From positions 1 to 13,783 of the forward strand of contig JADFPK010000022.1 of assembly GCA_022562375.1 (NCBI GenBank): a stretch of 13,783 bases of DNA. The letters run 5' to 3'. Positions within the stretch are counted from its first letter, which is position 1. Every line of letters starts with the position of its first letter. Positions 1,274-12,117 of this stretch are shown here, one piece after another. Under the pieces are notes generated by a model. The model ran no database searches, was not told the origin of the DNA, and saw only the letters and a list, made by a program, of their open reading frames with translations. The position numbers and the translations under genes were made by a program. Source of the DNA: Pseudomonadota bacterium (GTDB lineage Bacteria; Pseudomonadota; Alphaproteobacteria; SMXQ01).

Positions 1274-1837
1274 TTACGCCCCGACCGCGTCGACGAAGCG
1301 GTCGCGGATGCTAAGCCCGTCCATCGGGATGACGCCGATGCCGTCGGGCATGCCCGTTTCGGTCTTGATCACGATGATTTGGGGACCGTCGTTGGCGCCA
1401 AGCGCGCCTTCGACGGCGGGGGTGATCCGCGCTTCCTCCTCGATCAGGGTGACGCGCTCGACGCCGCAGGCACGGGCGACGGCGTCGAGGCGCAAATTAC
1501 CGGCGGTGAAGGAGGGCTGGAAGCCGGTCGATCCATAGCGTTCGTTATCGATGATGATCAGCAGGTAGTTCGCCGGGCGCACCAGGCCGATGGTGGCGAG
1601 CGAGCCCATGTTCATGGCCACCGCCCCGTCGCCCTCGAGCACGACGACCTTCTTGGCCTGGGACATGGCGAGGCCGAGGCCGATCGAGGAGGCGAGCCCC
1701 ATCGACCCCAGCATGTAGAAGTTCTCGGGCCGGTCGCGGATGACGAACAGCTCCTGGGCCGGGTGGCCGATGTTGCACACCACCAACTCGTCGGTGATTG
1801 CCTCCATGACCCGTTCGGTCGCTTCGAATCGTCTCAA
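1274..1837 (-). CDS. comE: ComE-type TPP decarboxylase, beta (TPP-binding) subunit
   Basis: This 187-residue protein is the C-terminal, diphosphate-binding half of a thiamine-diphosphate decarboxylase. Visible landmarks are IGHPAQELF (24-31), LGSMGLASSIGLGLA (43-57), the GDG motif at 69-71 followed by AVAMNMGSLATIG, and IDNERYGSTG (96-105), which supplies the Asn of the GDG-x(n)-N motif. Length and split organisation match ComE of sulfopyruvate decarboxylase (EC 4.1.1.79, sulfopyruvate to sulfoacetaldehyde plus CO2). Two-subunit phosphonopyruvate decarboxylases look very similar and cannot be excluded; neither xsc nor pepM is in the window. The start is TTG with AAAGG 8 nt upstream; an in-frame TGA lies just upstream, ruling out extension. 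The alpha gene lies 73 nt before it, bridged by a 24-codon ORF. Confidence 0.8.
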   Translation of the reverse strand: MRRFEATERVMEAITDELVVCNIGHPAQELFVIRDRPENFYMLGSMGLASSIGLGLAMSQAKKVVVLEGDGAVAMNMGSLATIGLVRPANYLLIIIDNERYGSTGFQPSFTAGNLRLDAVARACGVERVTLIEEEARITPAVEGALGANDGPQIIVIKTETGMPDGIGVIPMDGLSIRDRFVDAVGA

Positions 1838-1839
1838 GG

Positions 1840-1914
1840 TTAATACCTTTCAGTCTGTTTCAGCGCCGCGATCGGAGGCGGCGGGCGAACGGCGGGATCG
1901 AAGCTTCGCATCAT
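1840..1914 (-). CDS. 24-codon ORF bridging the alpha and beta decarboxylase genes
   Basis: The ORF reads MMRSFDPAVRPPPPIAALKQ and ends TERY. Its ATG overlaps the alpha-subunit stop as ATGA (1914-1911). A GGGAGGG Shine-Dalgarno-like sequence inside the end of the alpha gene precedes it by about 6 nt. Its TAA (1842-1840) ends 2 nt before the TTG start of the beta subunit. It therefore fills the 73-nt gap exactly and could couple translation of alpha to beta by termination-reinitiation. The proline run and small size resemble no family I know. It may be non-functional as a peptide, or a chance open frame in GC-rich DNA. Confidence 0.3.
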   Translation of the reverse strand: MMRSFDPAVRPPPPIAALKQTERY

Positions 1915-2414
1915 TCGCCGCCCTCCCAGAAACTGAAGGGGAAGAGGAAGCCGACGGGCTTTTGGGTCTCGAACGCCCTATTGATGCCTTCCCCGACCCG
2001 GTCGAGCTCGGCGGTGCTTACGATCTCGATGCAATCGACGCCGACGGCCTCCATCAACGGCTTGACCGCATCCCCCATGACCCGCTGGGCCTCGACCGGC
2101 TCGCCCTCGCTTCCCCGGTGGCTGGTGAGGAACACCACCGGTATCTTGAAATAAGTTAGCAGCGAACAGACGGCGTTGACGGTGTTGCCGAAGCCCGAGT
2201 TCTGCATCACCAGCGCCGGCCGCTTGCCCGCCATATAGGCGCCGGCGAGGATGCCGAGGCCCTCTTCCTCCCGCGTCACCGGCGTGTAGGTGATATCCGG
2301 GTCATCTTCGAGGCGTTCGATGAGCTCGGCCAGCAACTTGCACGGCACCGAGACGAAGAAATCGATCTTCTCGGCCCTCAGCCTTTCGTAGAGTTGCTCC
2401 GTCGGGGTCAACAC
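1911..2414 (-). CDS. comD: ComD-type TPP decarboxylase, alpha (PYR) subunit
   Basis: This 167-residue protein is the N-terminal pyrimidine-binding half of a split TPP enzyme, partner of the downstream beta subunit. The segment REEEGLGILAGAYMAGKRPA (48-67) carries the Glu expected to activate the TPP aminopyrimidine (E49-E51 region). MQNSGFGNTVNAVCSLLTY (70-88) and IPVVFLTSHRGSEGEPVEAQ (91-110) are characteristic of ComD-type sulfopyruvate and phosphonopyruvate decarboxylases. GTG at 2414 has AAGGAG only 3 nt away; the next codon, TTG at 2411, is at a better 6-nt spacing and may be the true start. It lies 24 nt after the longer FAH gene. Together with the two FAH hydrolases and the SLC13 permease it suggests catabolism of a substituted pyruvate. 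Confidence 0.82.
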   Translation of the reverse strand: MLTPTEQLYERLRAEKIDFFVSVPCKLLAELIERLEDDPDITYTPVTREEEGLGILAGAYMAGKRPALVMQNSGFGNTVNAVCSLLTYFKIPVVFLTSHRGSEGEPVEAQRVMGDAVKPLMEAVGVDCIEIVSTAELDRVGEGINRAFETQKPVGFLFPFSFWEGGE

Positions 2415-4236: not shown

Positions 4237-6090
4237 TCAAAGCCCGTAATACCACGGCGCGAACAGGGTGAATGCCAGCCACACCAAGATCACCAGCGGC
4301 GCGCCGGCGCGGGTGAAGTCGAGGAACCGGTAATTGCCGGGCGCCATCACCAGAAGGTTGGTCTGGTAGCCGATCGGCGAGGCGAAACTGCAGTTGGCGG
4401 CGAAAATCACGGCGACGGCGAAGGGCTCGACCGCAACGCCGAGGCCGGTGGCGAGGCTGACGGCGATCGGCGTGAACAGCACCGCCGTGGCCTTGGCGTT
4501 GATCAGGTTCGACAGCACGGCGACGAGGAGGAAGAATCCGGACAACACCGACGCCGGGCCGAAGTCGCCCGCGCTTCTCAGCAACACCCCGGCCAGGAAG
4601 TCGGCGCCGCCGGTTTCCTGCATGGCAATGCCCAAGGCCAGGGCGGCGGCGATCATCATCACCACATTGCGGTCGATGGCGCGGCCCGCCTGGCGGACGT
4701 TGAGCACGTTGGCGGCCAACATCAGACCGGCGCCGCTGAGCGCGGCGATGGAGATCGGCAAGATGCCCAACGCGGCGATGGCGAGAACCGCCCCGAAGAT
4801 CGCCAGCGCCCGGCGCGCATGATGGACCGAAGGCAGATCGGCGGCGGACCATTCGATCAACAACACGTCGGGATTGCCGCGCAAGGCGGTGATGTCCTCT
4901 CGCCGTCCCTGGATGAGCAGCACATCGCCCCCGGCGAGGCGGATCTCGGTGATCCGGCTGCGGATCATCCGCGATTGCCGTTGCAACCCGACGACGATGC
5001 AATGGGTGTGGTAACGAAAGCCGATCTGCTCCAGCGTCCGGCCGATCAGGCGCGAGGTCGGCGTCACCATGACCTCGACCAATGTCTGGCTGCCGGCCTG
5101 CCAGCGGCGGGGTTCTTCCCCGGCCTCCGCCTCGCCCTCGGGCTCATCGCCAAGATCGGGGTGCAGAAGATCGGTTTCATCGCCGAGCAGATCGGTCAGC
5201 GCCTTGCGCGTCGCGGCGACGACCAGGATGTCGCCCGGCGCCAGGGTCAATTCGTCATCGAAGGGCGGCACGAAGGCGTGCTCGCCGCGCTGGAGGATGC
5301 GGACGGTGACCTCCGCCAGTTGCGGGAAATAACCGCCGAGTGGCGCCAGGCCATCGAATTGCGAACCCTCGGCGACGCTGATCTGGGCGATGAACTGACG
5401 GCCGCCGCCGGTCAGCGCCGCCGTAAGCAAGTCGCGCGACGGCATTAGCCGCGGCGCGATGGTGACCAGATAGACCAGGCCGACGACGGCCAGCACGATG
5501 CCGGGCACGGTGAAATCGAAAAACCCGAAGCCCGGGCGTCCCATCTCCACCAGCGTTCCCGACACCAGGAGATTGGTGCTCGACCCGATCAGCGTCGTCA
5601 TGCCGCCGAGGATCGCCGCGAAGCTGAGCGGCATCATCATCCGGCTCGGCGAACGGTCGAGCCGTTCGGACAGCACCTGCATGACCGGTATGAAGATGAC
5701 CACCACCGGCGTGTTGTTGAGAAAGCCGCTGACCACCAGCACGGTGATCAAGACCAGCGCCAGCGCCAGGACGGCATGGCCCCGCGCCAGGCGCAGCACC
5801 AGACCGGCGCCGCGCTCGAGCACGCCGGTCGCCGCCAGCCCCTGGCCCATGACCAGCAGCCCGACCACGGCGAGCAGCGCCGGATTGGCGAAACCGGCCA
5901 GCAACTGCTTGGCGCCGAGGCGGTTGGCGCCGGTTTCGTCGATGACGGGGGCGAAGTGGAACAGCACCGCGAGGGTGCATATCACCCCCAGCGATGTCAG
6001 CGCCAGGGGGATGCGTTCGAACGCATAGAGCACCAATGCCGCGATGATGACGGCAAAGATCGCCCACATGCCGAAGTCGGTCCCGGTCAA
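4237..6090 (-). CDS. SLC13/DASS-type anion permease with two RCK_C (TrkA-C) domains
   Basis: The protein has about 617 residues from TTG 6090 (639 if read from GTG 6156; residue numbers below use the longer reading). N-terminal membrane segments contain SGFLNNTPVVVIFIP (143-157) and GGMTTLIGSSTNLLVSG (184-200), both hallmark SLC13 motifs. Two soluble RCK_C domains follow: about 253-326 (ISVAEGSQFDGLAPL, LAPGDILVVAA) and about 357-428 (VMVTPTSRLIGRTLEQIGF, LAGGDVLLIQG). The second membrane half repeats the motifs as LSNLINAKATAVLFTPIA and FASPIGYQTNLLVMAPGNY. Such carriers move sulfate, sulfonates or di/tricarboxylates; direction and substrate are unknown. TTG 6090 is preferred because GGGGGAG lies 5 nt upstream, while GTG 6156 has no such site and abuts a strong hairpin. 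It is the first gene of the putative decarboxylase cluster. Confidence 0.88.
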   Translation of the reverse strand: MTGTDFGMWAIFAVIIAALVLYAFERIPLALTSLGVICTLAVLFHFAPVIDETGANRLGAKQLLAGFANPALLAVVGLLVMGQGLAATGVLERGAGLVLRLARGHAVLALALVLITVLVVSGFLNNTPVVVIFIPVMQVLSERLDRSPSRMMMPLSFAAILGGMTTLIGSSTNLLVSGTLVEMGRPGFGFFDFTVPGIVLAVVGLVYLVTIAPRLMPSRDLLTAALTGGGRQFIAQISVAEGSQFDGLAPLGGYFPQLAEVTVRILQRGEHAFVPPFDDELTLAPGDILVVAATRKALTDLLGDETDLLHPDLGDEPEGEAEAGEEPRRWQAGSQTLVEVMVTPTSRLIGRTLEQIGFRYHTHCIVVGLQRQSRMIRSRITEIRLAGGDVLLIQGRREDITALRGNPDVLLIEWSAADLPSVHHARRALAIFGAVLAIAALGILPISIAALSGAGLMLAANVLNVRQAGRAIDRNVVMMIAAALALGIAMQETGGADFLAGVLLRSAGDFGPASVLSGFFLLVAVLSNLINAKATAVLFTPIAVSLATGLGVAVEPFAVAVIFAANCSFASPIGYQTNLLVMAPGNYRFLDFTRAGAPLVILVWLAFTLFAPWYYGL

Positions 6091-6158
6091 CGGCACTCCC
6101 CCGATGTCCTCGAATGTTGTTGTCGTCGTCGTGGAGGCAAAGCGTAACACGCCCACGC

Positions 6159-6309: not shown

Positions 6310-6333
6310 ATCCGGTGCTAATATCCGCCGGAT
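6310..6333 (+). promoter_or_regulatory. Candidate extended -10 promoter of the cyclase gene inside an inverted repeat
   Basis: TGCTAATAT (6316-6324) matches an extended -10 element (TGnTATAAT-like), placing a start near 6331 and a leader of about 30 nt before ATG 6364. ATCCGG (6310-6315) and CCGGAT (6328-6333) form an inverted repeat exactly bracketing it, where a bound repressor would block polymerase. No good -35 box is seen at 17 nt. Confidence 0.35.
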
Positions 6334-6363: not shown

Positions 6364-7749
6364 ATGGTCAAAGTAACCTCGCTACCGGACAAGATAGATA
6401 TCGACGTCGCCGCGGGCGAGACCCTGCTGGAGGCGGCGCTGCGGTCGGGCGTGCCGTTCGCGCATGCCTGCGGCGGTCGGGCAAAATGTTCGACCTGCCG
6501 CATCTGGGTCCTCGATGGCCTGAAAGCGTGTCCGCGACGCTCGGCCGATGAGACTTCCATGGCGGAACGGTTGGGGCTGGCCGACGACGTGCGTCTGGCT
6601 TGTCAACTCAGGCCTGAAGGCGAACTTCGCGTCCGACGCCTGGTGCTCGACGAAACCGATCTGATGATGGCCAACCAGCTCGACCGTTCCGAGGCGGCGC
6701 GCACGGGCGAGACAAAATACGTCACCATTTTCTTCAGCGATATCGCTGATTTCACGTCGTTGTCGGAGCGTTTGTCGCCTTACGACGTGATGTACCTACT
6801 GAACCGTTACTTCGCGCAGGTGGGCGATATTATCGAGCGGAATGACGGCTTTATCGACAAGTTCGTCGGCGATGGCCTGATGGCGATTTTCGGCATCGAC
6901 GACCAGCCTGACGCACCGCTTCGCTCGATAAACGCGGCCTTGCAAACCCTGGCCACCGTCGATCGGATGAAGCCATTTTTCGCATCCATGTATGACGTCG
7001 ATTTCGATATCCGAATTGGCCTCCATTACGGCGAGGCCGTCATCGGCTCGCTGGGATCGATCGGCCACCAACGCCTGACGGCGGTCGGCGACGTGGTCAA
7101 CGTCGCCAGCCGGGTCGAGGCCGCCAACAAGGACGCCGGTACGCGGCTCCTGATATCGGCGGCGCTGCATGACCGGGTCGCAAGCAAGCTAGAGGTCGCC
7201 GATTTCGTCAGGATGCGGCTGCGGGGTACCAGCGAACGTATTACCCTGCATGAGATCCGCCGGCTGAGTCCCGAAGCCGATGCCGAGCTGAATGCTAAGG
7301 AACGCCGCCAGACCCTGGTTTATGCCGGCAAAAATTGGGTTCGCGTCTTCGCCGAAGACGAACTGGAAATCGGCGAACGCAAAATTCTCGATTTCGAAGA
7401 CTACGATGTCGTCGTCGTACGTGGGGCCGACGCCTATTATGCCTTCAACAATGCCTGCCCGCACCTCCATCTGCCGCTTTACGAACGCCGGGTTGTGGCC
7501 GAGGGCGATGGATTACAGCTACCGCACACCGCCAGCACCATCACCGAGGACCGTGGCCTGGTTTGCCGATGGCACCAGAGCTGTTTCGACCTTCAGACCG
7601 GTGACGTTCGGGAGTGGGCGACCAAGCTGCGGGAGGACGGCACCTCGCCGGGCCAGGAATACCTGGGCGACATCTCGAAAAACCGCACCAAATTGACGGT
7701 CTACGCCTGCCGCGTCGATGACGGCCATTTGTGGATCGCCCTCGAGTAA
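6364..7749 (+). CDS. Ferredoxin - class III adenylate cyclase - Rieske fusion protein
   Basis: This 461-residue soluble protein has three domains. Residues 1-96 form a plant/adrenodoxin-type [2Fe-2S] ferredoxin with ligands C36, C42, C45 (ACGGRAKCSTC) and C80 (LACQL). Residues about 115-302 form a class III cyclase catalytic domain: metal Asp D126 (FFSDIADFTSL) and D170 (DKFVGDGLMAIF), base-selecting K166 and T239 (RLTAVGDVVN), transition-state N246 and R250 (VNVASR). The K/T pair favours ATP over GTP. Residues about 316-461 form a Rieske domain: C365/H367 (ACPHLHL) and C401/H404 (VCRWHQSCFDLQTGD), with an insertion lengthening the usual gap between ligand pairs. There is no transmembrane segment. 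The likely role is redox- or oxygen-responsive cAMP synthesis; electron flow is inference. ATG 6364 is preferred over TTG 6352 because ferredoxin domains start near MVKVTSLPD; neither has a good ribosome-binding site. It diverges from the permease. Confidence 0.9.
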   Translation: MVKVTSLPDKIDIDVAAGETLLEAALRSGVPFAHACGGRAKCSTCRIWVLDGLKACPRRSADETSMAERLGLADDVRLACQLRPEGELRVRRLVLDETDLMMANQLDRSEAARTGETKYVTIFFSDIADFTSLSERLSPYDVMYLLNRYFAQVGDIIERNDGFIDKFVGDGLMAIFGIDDQPDAPLRSINAALQTLATVDRMKPFFASMYDVDFDIRIGLHYGEAVIGSLGSIGHQRLTAVGDVVNVASRVEAANKDAGTRLLISAALHDRVASKLEVADFVRMRLRGTSERITLHEIRRLSPEADAELNAKERRQTLVYAGKNWVRVFAEDELEIGERKILDFEDYDVVVVRGADAYYAFNNACPHLHLPLYERRVVAEGDGLQLPHTASTITEDRGLVCRWHQSCFDLQTGDVREWATKLREDGTSPGQEYLGDISKNRTKLTVYACRVDDGHLWIALE

Positions 7750-7767: not shown

Positions 7768-7787
7768 GGGTCGATGCGACTTGATTT
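7768..7787 (+). repeat. 20-bp dispersed repeat, copy 1
   Basis: GGGTCGATGCGACTTGATTT is identical to 13191-13210, directly left of the IS630 element. An exact 20-mer in a 13.8-kb window is not expected by chance. It lies 19 bp after the cyclase stop, at the left border of a repeat-rich scar. Confidence 0.7.
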
Positions 7788-7789
7788 CA

Positions 7790-7852
7790 CGCAATAGGGG
7801 TCGCACGCAGTAGGGGTCACACGCAGTAGGGGTCACACACGCAGTAGGGGTC
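7790..7852 (+). repeat. Short tandem repeat, about 16-18 bp, four units
   Basis: Units CGCAATAGGGGTCGCA (7790-7805), CGCAGTAGGGGTCACA (7806-7821), the same with an extra CA (7822-7839), and CGCAGTAGGGGTC (7840-7852) run head to tail. The last unit merges into the left arm of the inverted-repeat element. Units carry the GGGGTCA core of that arm, so they look like serial duplications of the element's end rather than a CRISPR array: there are no spacers. Confidence 0.75.
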
Positions 7853-7989
7853 AGGTCTTGTATCTTGCAGGCCAACCGTTGCGGCGATCTCGGTCAGGGT
7901 GTAGCCATGAGGTTCGTGCGCCGCCGTCATCCAGGCGCCGCGGTCGGCATGCCGGTTTCGGATCGCCGCAAAATACAAGACCTGACCCC
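7847..7989. mobile_element. Non-autonomous REP/RAYT-type inverted-repeat element
   Basis: Left arm 7847-7868 (GGGGTCAGGTCTTGTATCTT then GC) and right arm 7968-7989 (ending ACAAGACCTGACCCC) are inverted copies that differ at 1 of 22 positions. They enclose about 99 bp that translate on the minus strand into an apparent transposase tail. Repeats of this GGGGTCAGGTCTTGTATTTT type commonly bound REP-associated tyrosine transposase units (established knowledge of the type; not searched). The element appears to be an internal deletion derivative. It separates the cyclase gene from the remnant of a GntR gene. Confidence 0.65.
7869..7967 (-). pseudogene. Remnant of a REP-associated (RAYT) transposase C-terminus
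   Basis: On the minus strand the interior reads AIRNRHADRGAWMTAAHEPH followed by GYTLTEIAATVGL, then runs straight into the repeat arm (QDTRPDP). The GYTL-EIA--VGL pattern is the C-terminal helix-turn-helix start of many RAYT transposases, which normally continue with HYSTVSRI. That continuation is missing, and nothing of the Y1 catalytic domain (HUH and Tyr motifs) remains. No start codon is sensible. The assignment rests on a short motif only. Confidence 0.5.
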
Positions 7990-8011
7990 AAATGCTCTGA
8001 CCCCAAATGCT
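7982..8011 (+). repeat. 15-bp exact tandem duplication at the right end of the element
   Basis: CTGACCCCAAATGCT occurs at 7982-7996 and 7997-8011. It duplicates the outer end of the inverted-repeat element, mirroring the tandem copies at its left end, and joins directly to the GntR remnant. Confidence 0.7.
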
Positions 8012-8243: not shown

Positions 8244-8996
8244 ATGTTCGTATCGAGTCACATGGTCAAGAACCCGATCGCGGAAAAATCCCTCGGCGTT
8301 ACGGCGGCCCGGTTCGCCAGGCTCAGCCTCGACCCGGCCCTTCGCGAGCGGAAGACCACGTCGGATTACATCGCCGACGCCCTGCGCGCGGCGATCTACG
8401 ACGGCCAGTTCGCCGACGGCGAGGAACTCAACCAGGTGGAGCTGGCCGGTTACTTCCAGGTATCGCGGGCGCCGATCCGCGAAGCGCTTCGCCGGCTCCA
8501 GGCCGAGGGGCTGGTCAGCAGCATCGCCCACCGCCGCGCCGTGGTGATCGGACTGGAGCTCACCGAAATCATCGAGCTGATCGAAATCCGGGCCGTCATC
8601 GAAGGCTACCTTGTGGAAAAGGCCGGTTCCAAGCTCAACGCCGAGTCCATCAGGCGTCTCAGACGCCTGTGCGATGAAATTGAAGGCATCGAGACCTACG
8701 ACTACAACTGGGTGATGAAGAACTGGGAGTTCCACCGGGTCATGTATGGTCCCTCCAGGTCGGCGGCAGCCATCGACATGGCCGAACAACTCCACCGAAA
8801 GGTTGAGCGATATATCCGCCGGACGGGCCGGTCCGAGCGGCTGCGGAGCGCGGCGAATGAGCACAGGCGGATTCTCGCCGAAGTGGAAAGGAAGGATTTC
8901 GCCGCCGCCGGGGCCGAAATGCGTGATCACATCTTCAATACGGGAGAGGAGATACGCCGCCACTTCCCGGCCGGGGGCAAGGAATTCACGGATTGA
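8244..8996 (+). CDS. GntR-family transcriptional regulator, FCD (FadR-C) subfamily
   Basis: This 250-residue protein has a winged helix-turn-helix at about 38-103 (TSDYIADALRAAIYDGQFAD, LAGYFQVSRAPIREALRRLQ, EGLV). An all-helical FCD ligand domain follows at about 108-235. Metal-site positions include H164 (NWEFHRVMY), H207 (EHRRILAEVE) and H229 (MRDHI); the usual Asp four residues before the first His is N160. FCD regulators usually sense an organic acid and control nearby transport or catabolic genes. It converges on the ABC operon with only 33 bp between, so that operon or the upstream genes are candidate targets. An N-terminal tail of about 37 residues precedes the HTH; M7 at 8262 is an alternative start, and neither has a clear Shine-Dalgarno sequence. 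Confidence 0.9.
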   Translation: MFVSSHMVKNPIAEKSLGVTAARFARLSLDPALRERKTTSDYIADALRAAIYDGQFADGEELNQVELAGYFQVSRAPIREALRRLQAEGLVSSIAHRRAVVIGLELTEIIELIEIRAVIEGYLVEKAGSKLNAESIRRLRRLCDEIEGIETYDYNWVMKNWEFHRVMYGPSRSAAAIDMAEQLHRKVERYIRRTGRSERLRSAANEHRRILAEVERKDFAAAGAEMRDHIFNTGEEIRRHFPAGGKEFTD

Positions 8997-10855: not shown

Positions 10856-11827
10856 CTACGGTCCGTCGTAAAGAACGCCCGGCGACGGCATCTTCTTAAG
10901 ATAGCCGATCGACAGGGCGGCCTTGAACGCGGCGGCGGCCGAATCGCGTTCCTTCCCCGGCCAGTAGACGCGCAACCCGAGCCGGTCCGAGCGGATGAAC
11001 GACTCTAGCACATCCGGCTTGAGCTTTCCCTTGGAGGCGTCGCTGATGATCTTGGCCGCCTCCTTCGGGTTGGCGGTTATGAAGTCCGCCGCCGACTTGT
11101 AGGCGTTGAACAGCTTGGGAATCAACGGCTTGTTCGCGGCCACCCATTCCTTGTGGGCGGCGACGCCGAGATAGGGCATCCCCGTCGTAATGCCGCTCTT
11201 TTTCTTCCAGTCGCTAACCAGGTCGAAGGCCCGGTACTTGTCGTTCTTGTAGGTGAGAATCGTATGGGCCGGCTCCCACATCTGGACCGCGTCCACGCGC
11301 CCCGAGGCGGCCATGGGCACCAGACCCGGCACCGGCGAGCTTTGGATCTCGACCTTAGACATGTCCAGGCCGGCCTCCTTGGCGAAGAAACGGAACATGG
11401 CGTAATTGGTTGTCGGCAGGGAAGCGGCGAGCTTTTTGCCTTCTAGATCCTTGAGCGTGTTGATGCCGCTTTTGGCGCCCACGACCACGGTGCCCCAGAA
11501 ATCGAACACGTTGAACAGGAAGATGGTCTCGACGCCCTTCTCGTTGAGCAAGGCCACGTCGGCGAGAATGGTGCCGGAGCCCCCTATCTTGTTGGTTCCG
11601 GCGGCGAAGTCGGTGCGGTAGAGGCCCGCCGGTTTGGCGTCGAACGTGATGTCTAGCCCATTGGCCTTGTCGAAGCCCTTGGCCTTGATGACGGGCGGGG
11701 TGAAGGCGGAAAGCGATGGGATCGTGAAAGTGGACAGTGTCAACTTCGTTTCCGCCGCCAAGGCCTGTCCAAACCAGACTAGGCCGACGACGAGGGCGCA
11801 CAACGAGCGCTTCGTGGTAGATTTCAT
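10856..11827 (-). CDS. NitT/TauT-type periplasmic substrate-binding protein (NMT1/SsuA-like)
   Basis: This 323-residue exported protein begins at ATG 11827 with GGGAG 8 nt upstream; a GTG three codons earlier overlaps that site. The signal peptide is MKSTTKRSLCALVVGLVWFG followed by QALA, with cleavage near residue 24; there is no lipobox. The mature sequence shows TLSTFTIPSLSAFTPPVI, DVALLNEKGVETIFLFNVFD, LKDLEGKKLAASLPTTNY and MAASGRVDAVQMWEPAH, the standard landmarks of the SsuA/TauA/NMT1-like group. It delivers an unknown small ligand to the permease and ATPase encoded downstream. Upstream, a GATAAT hexamer on the minus strand (11938-11933) and a GTATAC-centred dyad (CGTGTATACG, 11951-11960) are the only regulatory hints. 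Confidence 0.9.
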   Translation of the reverse strand: MKSTTKRSLCALVVGLVWFGQALAAETKLTLSTFTIPSLSAFTPPVIKAKGFDKANGLDITFDAKPAGLYRTDFAAGTNKIGGSGTILADVALLNEKGVETIFLFNVFDFWGTVVVGAKSGINTLKDLEGKKLAASLPTTNYAMFRFFAKEAGLDMSKVEIQSSPVPGLVPMAASGRVDAVQMWEPAHTILTYKNDKYRAFDLVSDWKKKSGITTGMPYLGVAAHKEWVAANKPLIPKLFNAYKSAADFITANPKEAAKIISDASKGKLKPDVLESFIRSDRLGLRVYWPGKERDSAAAAFKAALSIGYLKKMPSPGVLYDGP

Positions 11828-12117
11828 GGTGATCACTCCCTGGTTGCTGTCGTTGGTGTTTGATGCTCCTATCCCGCTCCCCCAGGGTCCCGTGTTTTTC
11901 CCGCCGGATTTGCCCTGGTTGGAATGTTAATAATTATCGTTCGCAGTCATCGTGTATACGTTAGCGTTAATCAACTTTTCCACTTCGTTACGGGGAGGAA
12001 CTGGTTGTTTATAAAATTATGGGATGCCGGCGGAGATGACCCGAGGCGATCGGAGGGGGCGCTGCTCCCTTGCGGCGCGCCTTTCCAAATTTTCGGCGTC
12101 CCGTCGTTTTGCCCGGA

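What the first reader, a model, noticed from the sequence alone, without database searches (positions are those of the whole stretch)
6364..7749. Cyclase flanked by two different [2Fe-2S] domains: a candidate redox-gated cAMP synthase
Seen: one open frame with ferredoxin ligands C36/C42/C45/C80, class III cyclase residues D126, K166, D170, T239, N246, R250, and Rieske ligands C365/H367/C401/H404, all intact, with no membrane segment. Known: ferredoxin domains fused to class III cyclases occur, and Rieske domains normally serve electron transfer or oxygenases. Inference: electrons pass between the low-potential ferredoxin and the higher-potential Rieske cluster, or each senses a different condition, and cluster state sets cAMP output. 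The triple architecture is not one I recognise as characterised. The gene is divergent from an anion permease/decarboxylase cluster, so cAMP signalling may be tied to that metabolism.
Basis: partly seen in the sequence, partly recalled or inferred. Interest (0 to 1): 0.78.

Follow-up and report, generated by a model that had tools for sequence, protein, structure and literature searches.

The report
Soluble cyclase with two iron-sulfur domains
This gene encodes a real, conserved bacterial enzyme that joins a messenger-making (cyclic AMP) domain to two different iron-sulfur electron-carrying domains, so it may let cells turn their redox state into a cyclic AMP signal, although no experiment has yet shown that.

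Summary
Window 6364-7749 (+) is one 461-aa frame: Fer2 [2Fe-2S] domain, class III cyclase, Rieske domain, named residues present, no membrane segment. It is not a local accident: 120 of 120 listed homologues have the same three domains, cluster ligands are near-invariant, and 18 sampled members form one clade. It is a soluble relative of a known redox-cyclase kind: Sinorhizobium CyaC (6TM diheme + [2Fe-2S] + cyclase; PMC10463352). New here is a pattern: the same Fer2-cyclase core carries a Rieske, an NAD(P)H-flavin reductase, a heme peroxidase, a membrane anchor, or nothing. I read it as an electron-gated adenylate cyclase with swappable redox inputs; gating itself is inferred. The permease/decarboxylase link is not supported. 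In Mesorhizobium the gene lies just upstream of the cyclic-nucleotide-gated K+ channel MloK1 in 4 of 30 carrier genomes; of 59 MloK1 loci, 5 others keep short remnants of it there and 6 have another cyclase. The Rieske domain resembles low-potential dioxygenase ferredoxins. Verdict: new variant of a known kind.

The parts
6364..7749 (+). gene for the 461-aa Fer2 - class III cyclase - Rieske protein
   Evidence: open frame and translation; Pfam; 120 of 120 listed homologues with the same domains
6385..6615 (+). Fer2 [2Fe-2S] ferredoxin domain, residues 8-84; ligands C36, C42, C45, C80
   Evidence: Pfam PF00111 E 5e-11; ligands 120-121 of 121; nearest solved ferredoxins by profile: 1i7h ferredoxin, an adrenodoxin homologue, putidaredoxin
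6634..6660 (+). linker motif RRLVxDxxD (residues 91-99) joining Fer2 to cyclase
   Evidence: exact motif in 120 of 121 Rieske-family rows, 93 of 120 other soluble Fer2-cyclase rows, 0 of 42 rows L011-L052, of which 40 have a membrane segment
6712..7227 (+). class III cyclase catalytic domain, residues 117-288; metal Asp 126/170, purine pair K166/T239, N246/R250
7333..7746 (+). Rieske [2Fe-2S] domain, residues 324-461; ligands C365, H367, C401, H404
6316..6324 (+). possible -10 element TGCTAATAT, 39 nt before the ATG
   Evidence: a TGCTA block at a similar place was read by eye upstream of several relatives; not tested statistically

Best explanation
A soluble class III adenylate cyclase whose cAMP output is set by the redox state of its iron-sulfur clusters. 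The Fer2 cluster, joined to the cyclase by a short conserved linker, is the gate; the C-terminal Rieske domain is the exchange port through which a soluble reductase or oxidant loads or drains electrons. Shown: architecture, conserved ligands and catalytic residues, one clade for the sampled Rieske fusions, exchange of the third module among relatives. Inferred: cluster assembly, homodimer, electron transfer Rieske to Fer2, gating. By analogy with CyaC the oxidised form would be the active one. Output in some Mesorhizobium relatives is probably the K+ channel MloK1; in the window's organism the target is unknown.
For: Three domains in 120 of 120 listed homologues, ligands near-invariant; 18 sampled Rieske rows one clade, support 100/99. 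The same core carries a heme peroxidase (53), an NAD-binding flavin reductase (22) or nothing further (45) in the 120 rows listed for a Leptospirales core (recounted by sequence; Pfam on five of them), and follows a multi-helix membrane part in CyaC-type proteins. CyaC: two heme b in its 6TM part, a [2Fe-2S] cluster, redox-sensitive activity, activated after oxidation by quinones (PMC10463352, passages). Effector link: just upstream of MloK1 in 4 of 30 carriers; cNMP-binding patatin next door in L001.
Against: No biochemical data. The full-length model does not fix the domain arrangement (pTM 0.52), so cluster-cluster distance is unknown. Fer2-cyclases without any third module exist (45 of 120 rows, some perhaps fragments), so the third module is not needed for whatever Fer2 does. 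K166 is N in 10 of 42 genome loci. MloK1 adjacency is a minority (4 of 30) and not in the window. The gene is absent from most sampled kin (present in 6 of 297 and 1 of 385 genomes, the centre genome counted in each), so it is dispensable.
Confidence: 0.5

Rival explanations
1. Cluster-integrity sensor: the clusters do not pass electrons; loss or damage of one of them by O2, NO, peroxide or iron shortage changes the cyclase.
For: Some iron-sulfur regulators work by cluster loss or damage (IscR, FNR; recalled). Fer2-cyclases without a third module (45 of 120 rows) could respond through one cluster alone.
Against: Third modules in relatives are redox enzymes or carriers (flavin reductase, peroxidase, CyaC-type membrane part), which points to electron flow; both clusters are of electron-carrier types.
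Confidence: 0.22
2. Two independent inputs: Fer2 and Rieske meet different partner proteins and the cyclase integrates both, with no electron transfer between them.
For: The Rieske domain is of dioxygenase-ferredoxin type, which normally docks to a flavin reductase (recalled); Fer2 is adrenodoxin-like.
Against: No shared partner gene was seen across 10 relatives' loci; no data separate this from the main reading.
Confidence: 0.15
3. The cyclase product is not cAMP, or specificity is relaxed, in at least part of the family.
For: K166, the purine-specifying lysine position, is R, N or S in 29 of 121 sequences and N in 10 of 42 genome loci; the named ones among the 10 are Sinorhizobium psoraleae and two Rhizobium plasmids.
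Against: The window has the usual K/T pair and T239 is invariant; in S. meliloti CyaC a K/T double mutant has very low activity (PMC10463352); all 120 rows keep K.
Confidence: 0.1
4. A regulator of the adjacent anion permease / decarboxylase genes.
For: Divergent orientation, 6156 and 6364, in the window. A GntR/FCD regulator is the next gene downstream both here and in L001.
Against: No window gene of that cluster flanks the copies in 10 loci; the only matches are FAA-hydrolase relatives about 8 kb away in L001 and an ABC ATPase in L082. The two GntR genes face opposite ways and share 37% over 75 residues only, and that family is very common. Relatives sit in varied surroundings.
Confidence: 0.04

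Closest known systems
Sinorhizobium meliloti CyaC (6TM diheme-b + [2Fe-2S] + class III cyclase)
   Same: A [2Fe-2S] cluster and a class III cyclase in one protein with redox-regulated cAMP synthesis (PMC10463352, passages read; the primary paper, Wissig 2019, is not held). The cyaC-annotated pSymB paralogue L093 has Fer2 directly before the cyclase; chromosomal CyaC itself was not fetched.
   Different: The window protein has no membrane anchor, a C-terminal Rieske domain instead, the RRLVxDxxD linker (0 of 42 rows L011-L052), and lies in a separate group from the 15 membrane-type rows sampled.
Fer2-cyclase fusions with flavin reductase or heme peroxidase (Leptospira, other spirochaetes, planctomycetes)
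   Same: No third-module difference in order: Fer2, linker, cyclase, third redox module; same linker motif in 93 of 120; L009 41% identical over the core.
   Different: Third module is an NAD-binding flavoprotein (22 of 120) or peroxidase (53 of 120), not Rieske. One paper search showed none on them.
Dioxygenase Rieske ferredoxins (carbazole, naphthalene, toluene, biphenyl systems)
Cyclic-nucleotide-gated K+ channel MloK1 (mll3241) with a cyclase gene upstream
   Same: The relative in M. kowhaii (L002) lies about 260 nt upstream of an MloK1 orthologue (E 5e-211 to PDB 2zd9).
   Different: The window has no channel gene beside it (and ORF list).

Membership tests
Class III nucleotide cyclase | catalytic domain over curated cut-off | tested here: met
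Class III nucleotide cyclase | two metal Asp, Asn/Arg transition-state pair, adenine K/T pair (roles recalled) | tested here: met
   D126, D170, N246, R250, K166, T239 present in the window protein
Class III nucleotide cyclase | homodimer making cAMP from ATP | not testable with these tools
   needs purified protein
Fer2 [2Fe-2S] ferredoxin | Cx5Cx2C...C ligands in a Fer2 domain | tested here: met
   PF00111 42.8 bits, cut-off 21; ligands 120-121 of 121
Rieske ferredoxin | CxH...CxxH ligands in the Rieske fold | tested here: met
High-potential bc1-type Rieske | extra cysteine in each ligand loop (disulfide; recalled) | tested here: not met
   residues 370 and 403 are L and W; W403 invariant in 68 rows
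CyaC-type redox cyclase | 6TM diheme anchor | tested here: not met
   no hydropathy segment in the window protein
CyaC-type redox cyclase | shared clade of the Fer2-cyclase core | tested here: not met
   15 membrane-type rows and 18 Rieske rows on separate starred branches; midpoint root, long branches flagged
CyaC-type redox cyclase | activity depends on redox state | not testable with these tools
   needs enzyme assay

The most novel reading that the evidence does not exclude
Fer2-cyclases are a general electron-gated second-messenger switch: one conserved Fer2-linker-cyclase core onto which evolution has plugged different electron sources or sinks (quinone/heme, NAD(P)H/flavin, peroxide/heme, Rieske, or a free partner). 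The Rieske version reads the electron pressure of soluble, oxygenase-type reductases and, in some Mesorhizobium, opens the K+ channel MloK1, which would tie redox state to membrane potential.
Probability: 0.3. Interest if true: 0.85.

Novelty: new variant of a known kind. Interest (0 to 1): 0.62.

Why it matters
If gating is real, a soluble single-gene protein would give a clean system for how an iron-sulfur cluster switches a cyclase, without membranes or quinones, and a set of natural fusions with which to swap inputs. The neighbourhood data also offer candidate cyclases for MloK1, a channel with many solved structures; what is known of its cAMP source in the cell was looked for only in the searches.

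Tried and rejected
Tie to the window's anion/decarboxylase genes: rejected on neighbourhood. Recent in-frame accident: rejected. Stand-alone Rieske ancestor: a search with the Rieske part gave 67 relatives of 91 candidates, several with cyclase sequence or on short contigs; of three rows from longer contigs that I read, P0257 begins with cyclase sequence while P0264 and P0274 are Rieske-only frames, which I cannot tell from broken copies. Domain geometry from the full model: unusable (pTM 0.52). Motif scan of 15 upstream regions for FNR, CRP, RpoN, RirA and NifA sites (patterns recalled): one RirA-like match, in L002, not pursued. Association of gene and MloK1 across 146 Mesorhizobium genomes (24 of 30 carriers, 35 of 116 others, counted; Fisher p 1.4e-6) is not corrected for kinship and carries little weight. 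A cNMP-binding domain lies within 10 kb of the gene in 4 of 13 genomes or plasmids (G001, G686, G002, G076), two of them alike in upstream DNA (L003 and L099): also weak. A hit in L129 (E 0.006) upstream of MloK1 was left out of the remnant count. Papers: ten searches showed none on a Fer2-cyclase-Rieske protein among the rows listed, most of them capped lists; PMC1949818, PMC4284462 and PMC2447327 were only searched for terms; the library lacks most subscription papers.

Full report
What is there. The frame 6364-7749 on the + strand encodes 461 residues with three Pfam domains in the order Fer2, Guanylate_cyc, Rieske. A hydropathy scan shows no membrane segment. NCBIfam has no match that names the whole protein; three models touch the ferredoxin part, all far under their cut-offs.

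Is it more than chance. Of 7997 scored candidates 2547 pass E 1e-3; only the best 120 are listed, and all 120 carry the three domains. The best listed row, 99% identical, is probably the same gene. In 121 aligned sequences seven cluster ligands are invariant and C36 is kept in 120; D126, D170, T239, N246 and R250 are invariant; K166 is K in 92, R in 16, N in 7, S in 6. In 42 genome loci (four genomes appear twice) all eight ligands are kept except in L008 and L157, which look like one contig, where the frame is broken within the Rieske part; K166 is N in 10. Both clusters and the cyclase have thus been kept together through long divergence (down to 60% identity).

Where it occurs. Two Rhizobium plasmids of 644 records with a match carry the whole protein. 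Rows with a name are Mesorhizobium, Rhizobium, Phyllobacterium and Ensifer; most of the 120 are nameless, many on short contigs. Matches at E 1e-110 were found in 6 of 297 genomes of the family of G001 and 1 of 385 of the class of G004, the centre genome included each time, and at E 1e-100 in 30 of 146 genomes of one genus, that of M. kowhaii.

Relatives and the third module. The Fer2-cyclase core is wider than this fusion. Around the core of L009 (a Leptospirales MAG) the 120 listed of 3531 proteins are Fer2 + cyclase + peroxidase (53), + NAD-binding flavin reductase (22), or no further domain (45, some perhaps fragments) (counted); Pfam scans of five of them agree. In rows L011-L052, mostly alphaproteobacterial, 40 of 42 have membrane segments; those followed place them before Fer2, as in CyaC, and the two without are short pieces. 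The cyaC-annotated S. meliloti paralogue L093 has four segments by the same scan before its Fer2. One spirochaete protein carries a Cys-rich DUF2769 before Fer2 (L010). A tree of 66 cores puts the 18 Rieske rows on one branch (100/99), next to a two-domain Hymenobacter protein whose branch is long, and the 15 membrane-type rows on another (100/99); long branches are flagged. The peroxidase, reductase and bare forms are intermixed, which suggests repeated gain or loss there. The linker RRLVxDxxD is exact in 120 of 121 Rieske-family rows, 93 of 120 of the second list, and 0 of 42 rows L011-L052.

What it may act on. Surroundings differ from genome to genome, apart from Mesorhizobium loci L004, L005, L006 and L008, which share neighbours. 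Of 10 flanking frames scanned two carry a cyclic-nucleotide-binding domain: a patatin upstream in L001 and a channel downstream in L002; of 10 further frames none does. The channel is an MloK1 orthologue (E 5e-211 to PDB 2zd9). Of 146 genomes of that genus 59 have MloK1 and 30 the cyclase; in 4 (G686, G722, G740, G745) the cyclase ends about 220-270 nt upstream of MloK1 on the same strand. In the 700 nt before all 59 MloK1 genes 16 show similarity to the query cyclases, and 0 of 59 shuffled controls do: the 4 intact copies; 5 remnants of 12-50 residues at 82-92% identity (L103, L112, L121, L164, L178; L103 belongs to a genome with a full copy elsewhere); 6 distant cyclases (L109, L114, L117, L119, L120, L170), five of them confirmed as a different class III cyclase of 355-357 aa; and 1 doubtful row, left out. 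The other 43 show none. Of 10 upstream frames scanned the other five were three glutathione synthetases and two without a family. So the place before MloK1 has been held by a cyclase more than once, which supports cAMP as the product and a channel as one target. The lineages are not independent, and the window has no such neighbour. Downstream of the cyclase both the window and L001 have a GntR/FCD regulator, in opposite orientation and with 37% identity over 75 residues only; I take this as chance.

Limits. All functional steps are inferred. The homologue lists show only best hits. The literature library is partial, and the primary CyaC paper was not held.

Noticed in passing
window 1274-2414 (-), 4237-6156 (-), 10856-11836 (-): Genes like sulfopyruvate decarboxylase alpha (over its NCBIfam cut-off) and beta (under it), a CitMHS anion permease, and a binding protein related to the sulfonate ABC family but under its cut-off: perhaps an organosulfonate or related acid catabolic neighbourhood.
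   Followed up: partly
window 7786-8011: Four copies of an 18-nt unit and a 28-nt inverted repeat (arms 7841-7868 and 7968-7995, 89% complementary) just behind the gene, perhaps a REP- or MITE-like element.
   Followed up: no
P0171 and others, one search list: Among 53 Fer2-cyclase-peroxidase proteins a proximal-His motif GAHTxG was found in 36 and a distal RxxFHD-type motif in 37 (motifs recalled); several Leptospira rows lack the proximal one, so the peroxidase part may have become a non-enzymatic sensor there.
   Followed up: partly
L010:3596-4984: A spirochaete Fer2-cyclase with an N-terminal Cys-rich DUF2769 domain.
   Followed up: no
L003, L081, L082, L095-L099, L143, L144: The adenine-specifying lysine position is Asn in these orthologues, which may change nucleotide preference or activity.
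   Followed up: partly
L109, L114, L117, L119, L120: A different 355-357-aa class III cyclase sits directly upstream of MloK1.
   Followed up: partly
L001:7633-9558: Patatin-like phospholipase with a cyclic-nucleotide-binding domain directly upstream of the cyclase, same strand.
   Followed up: partly
window 8244-8996 and L001:11745-12482: A GntR/FCD regulator is the next gene downstream of the cyclase in both, facing opposite ways.
   Followed up: partly
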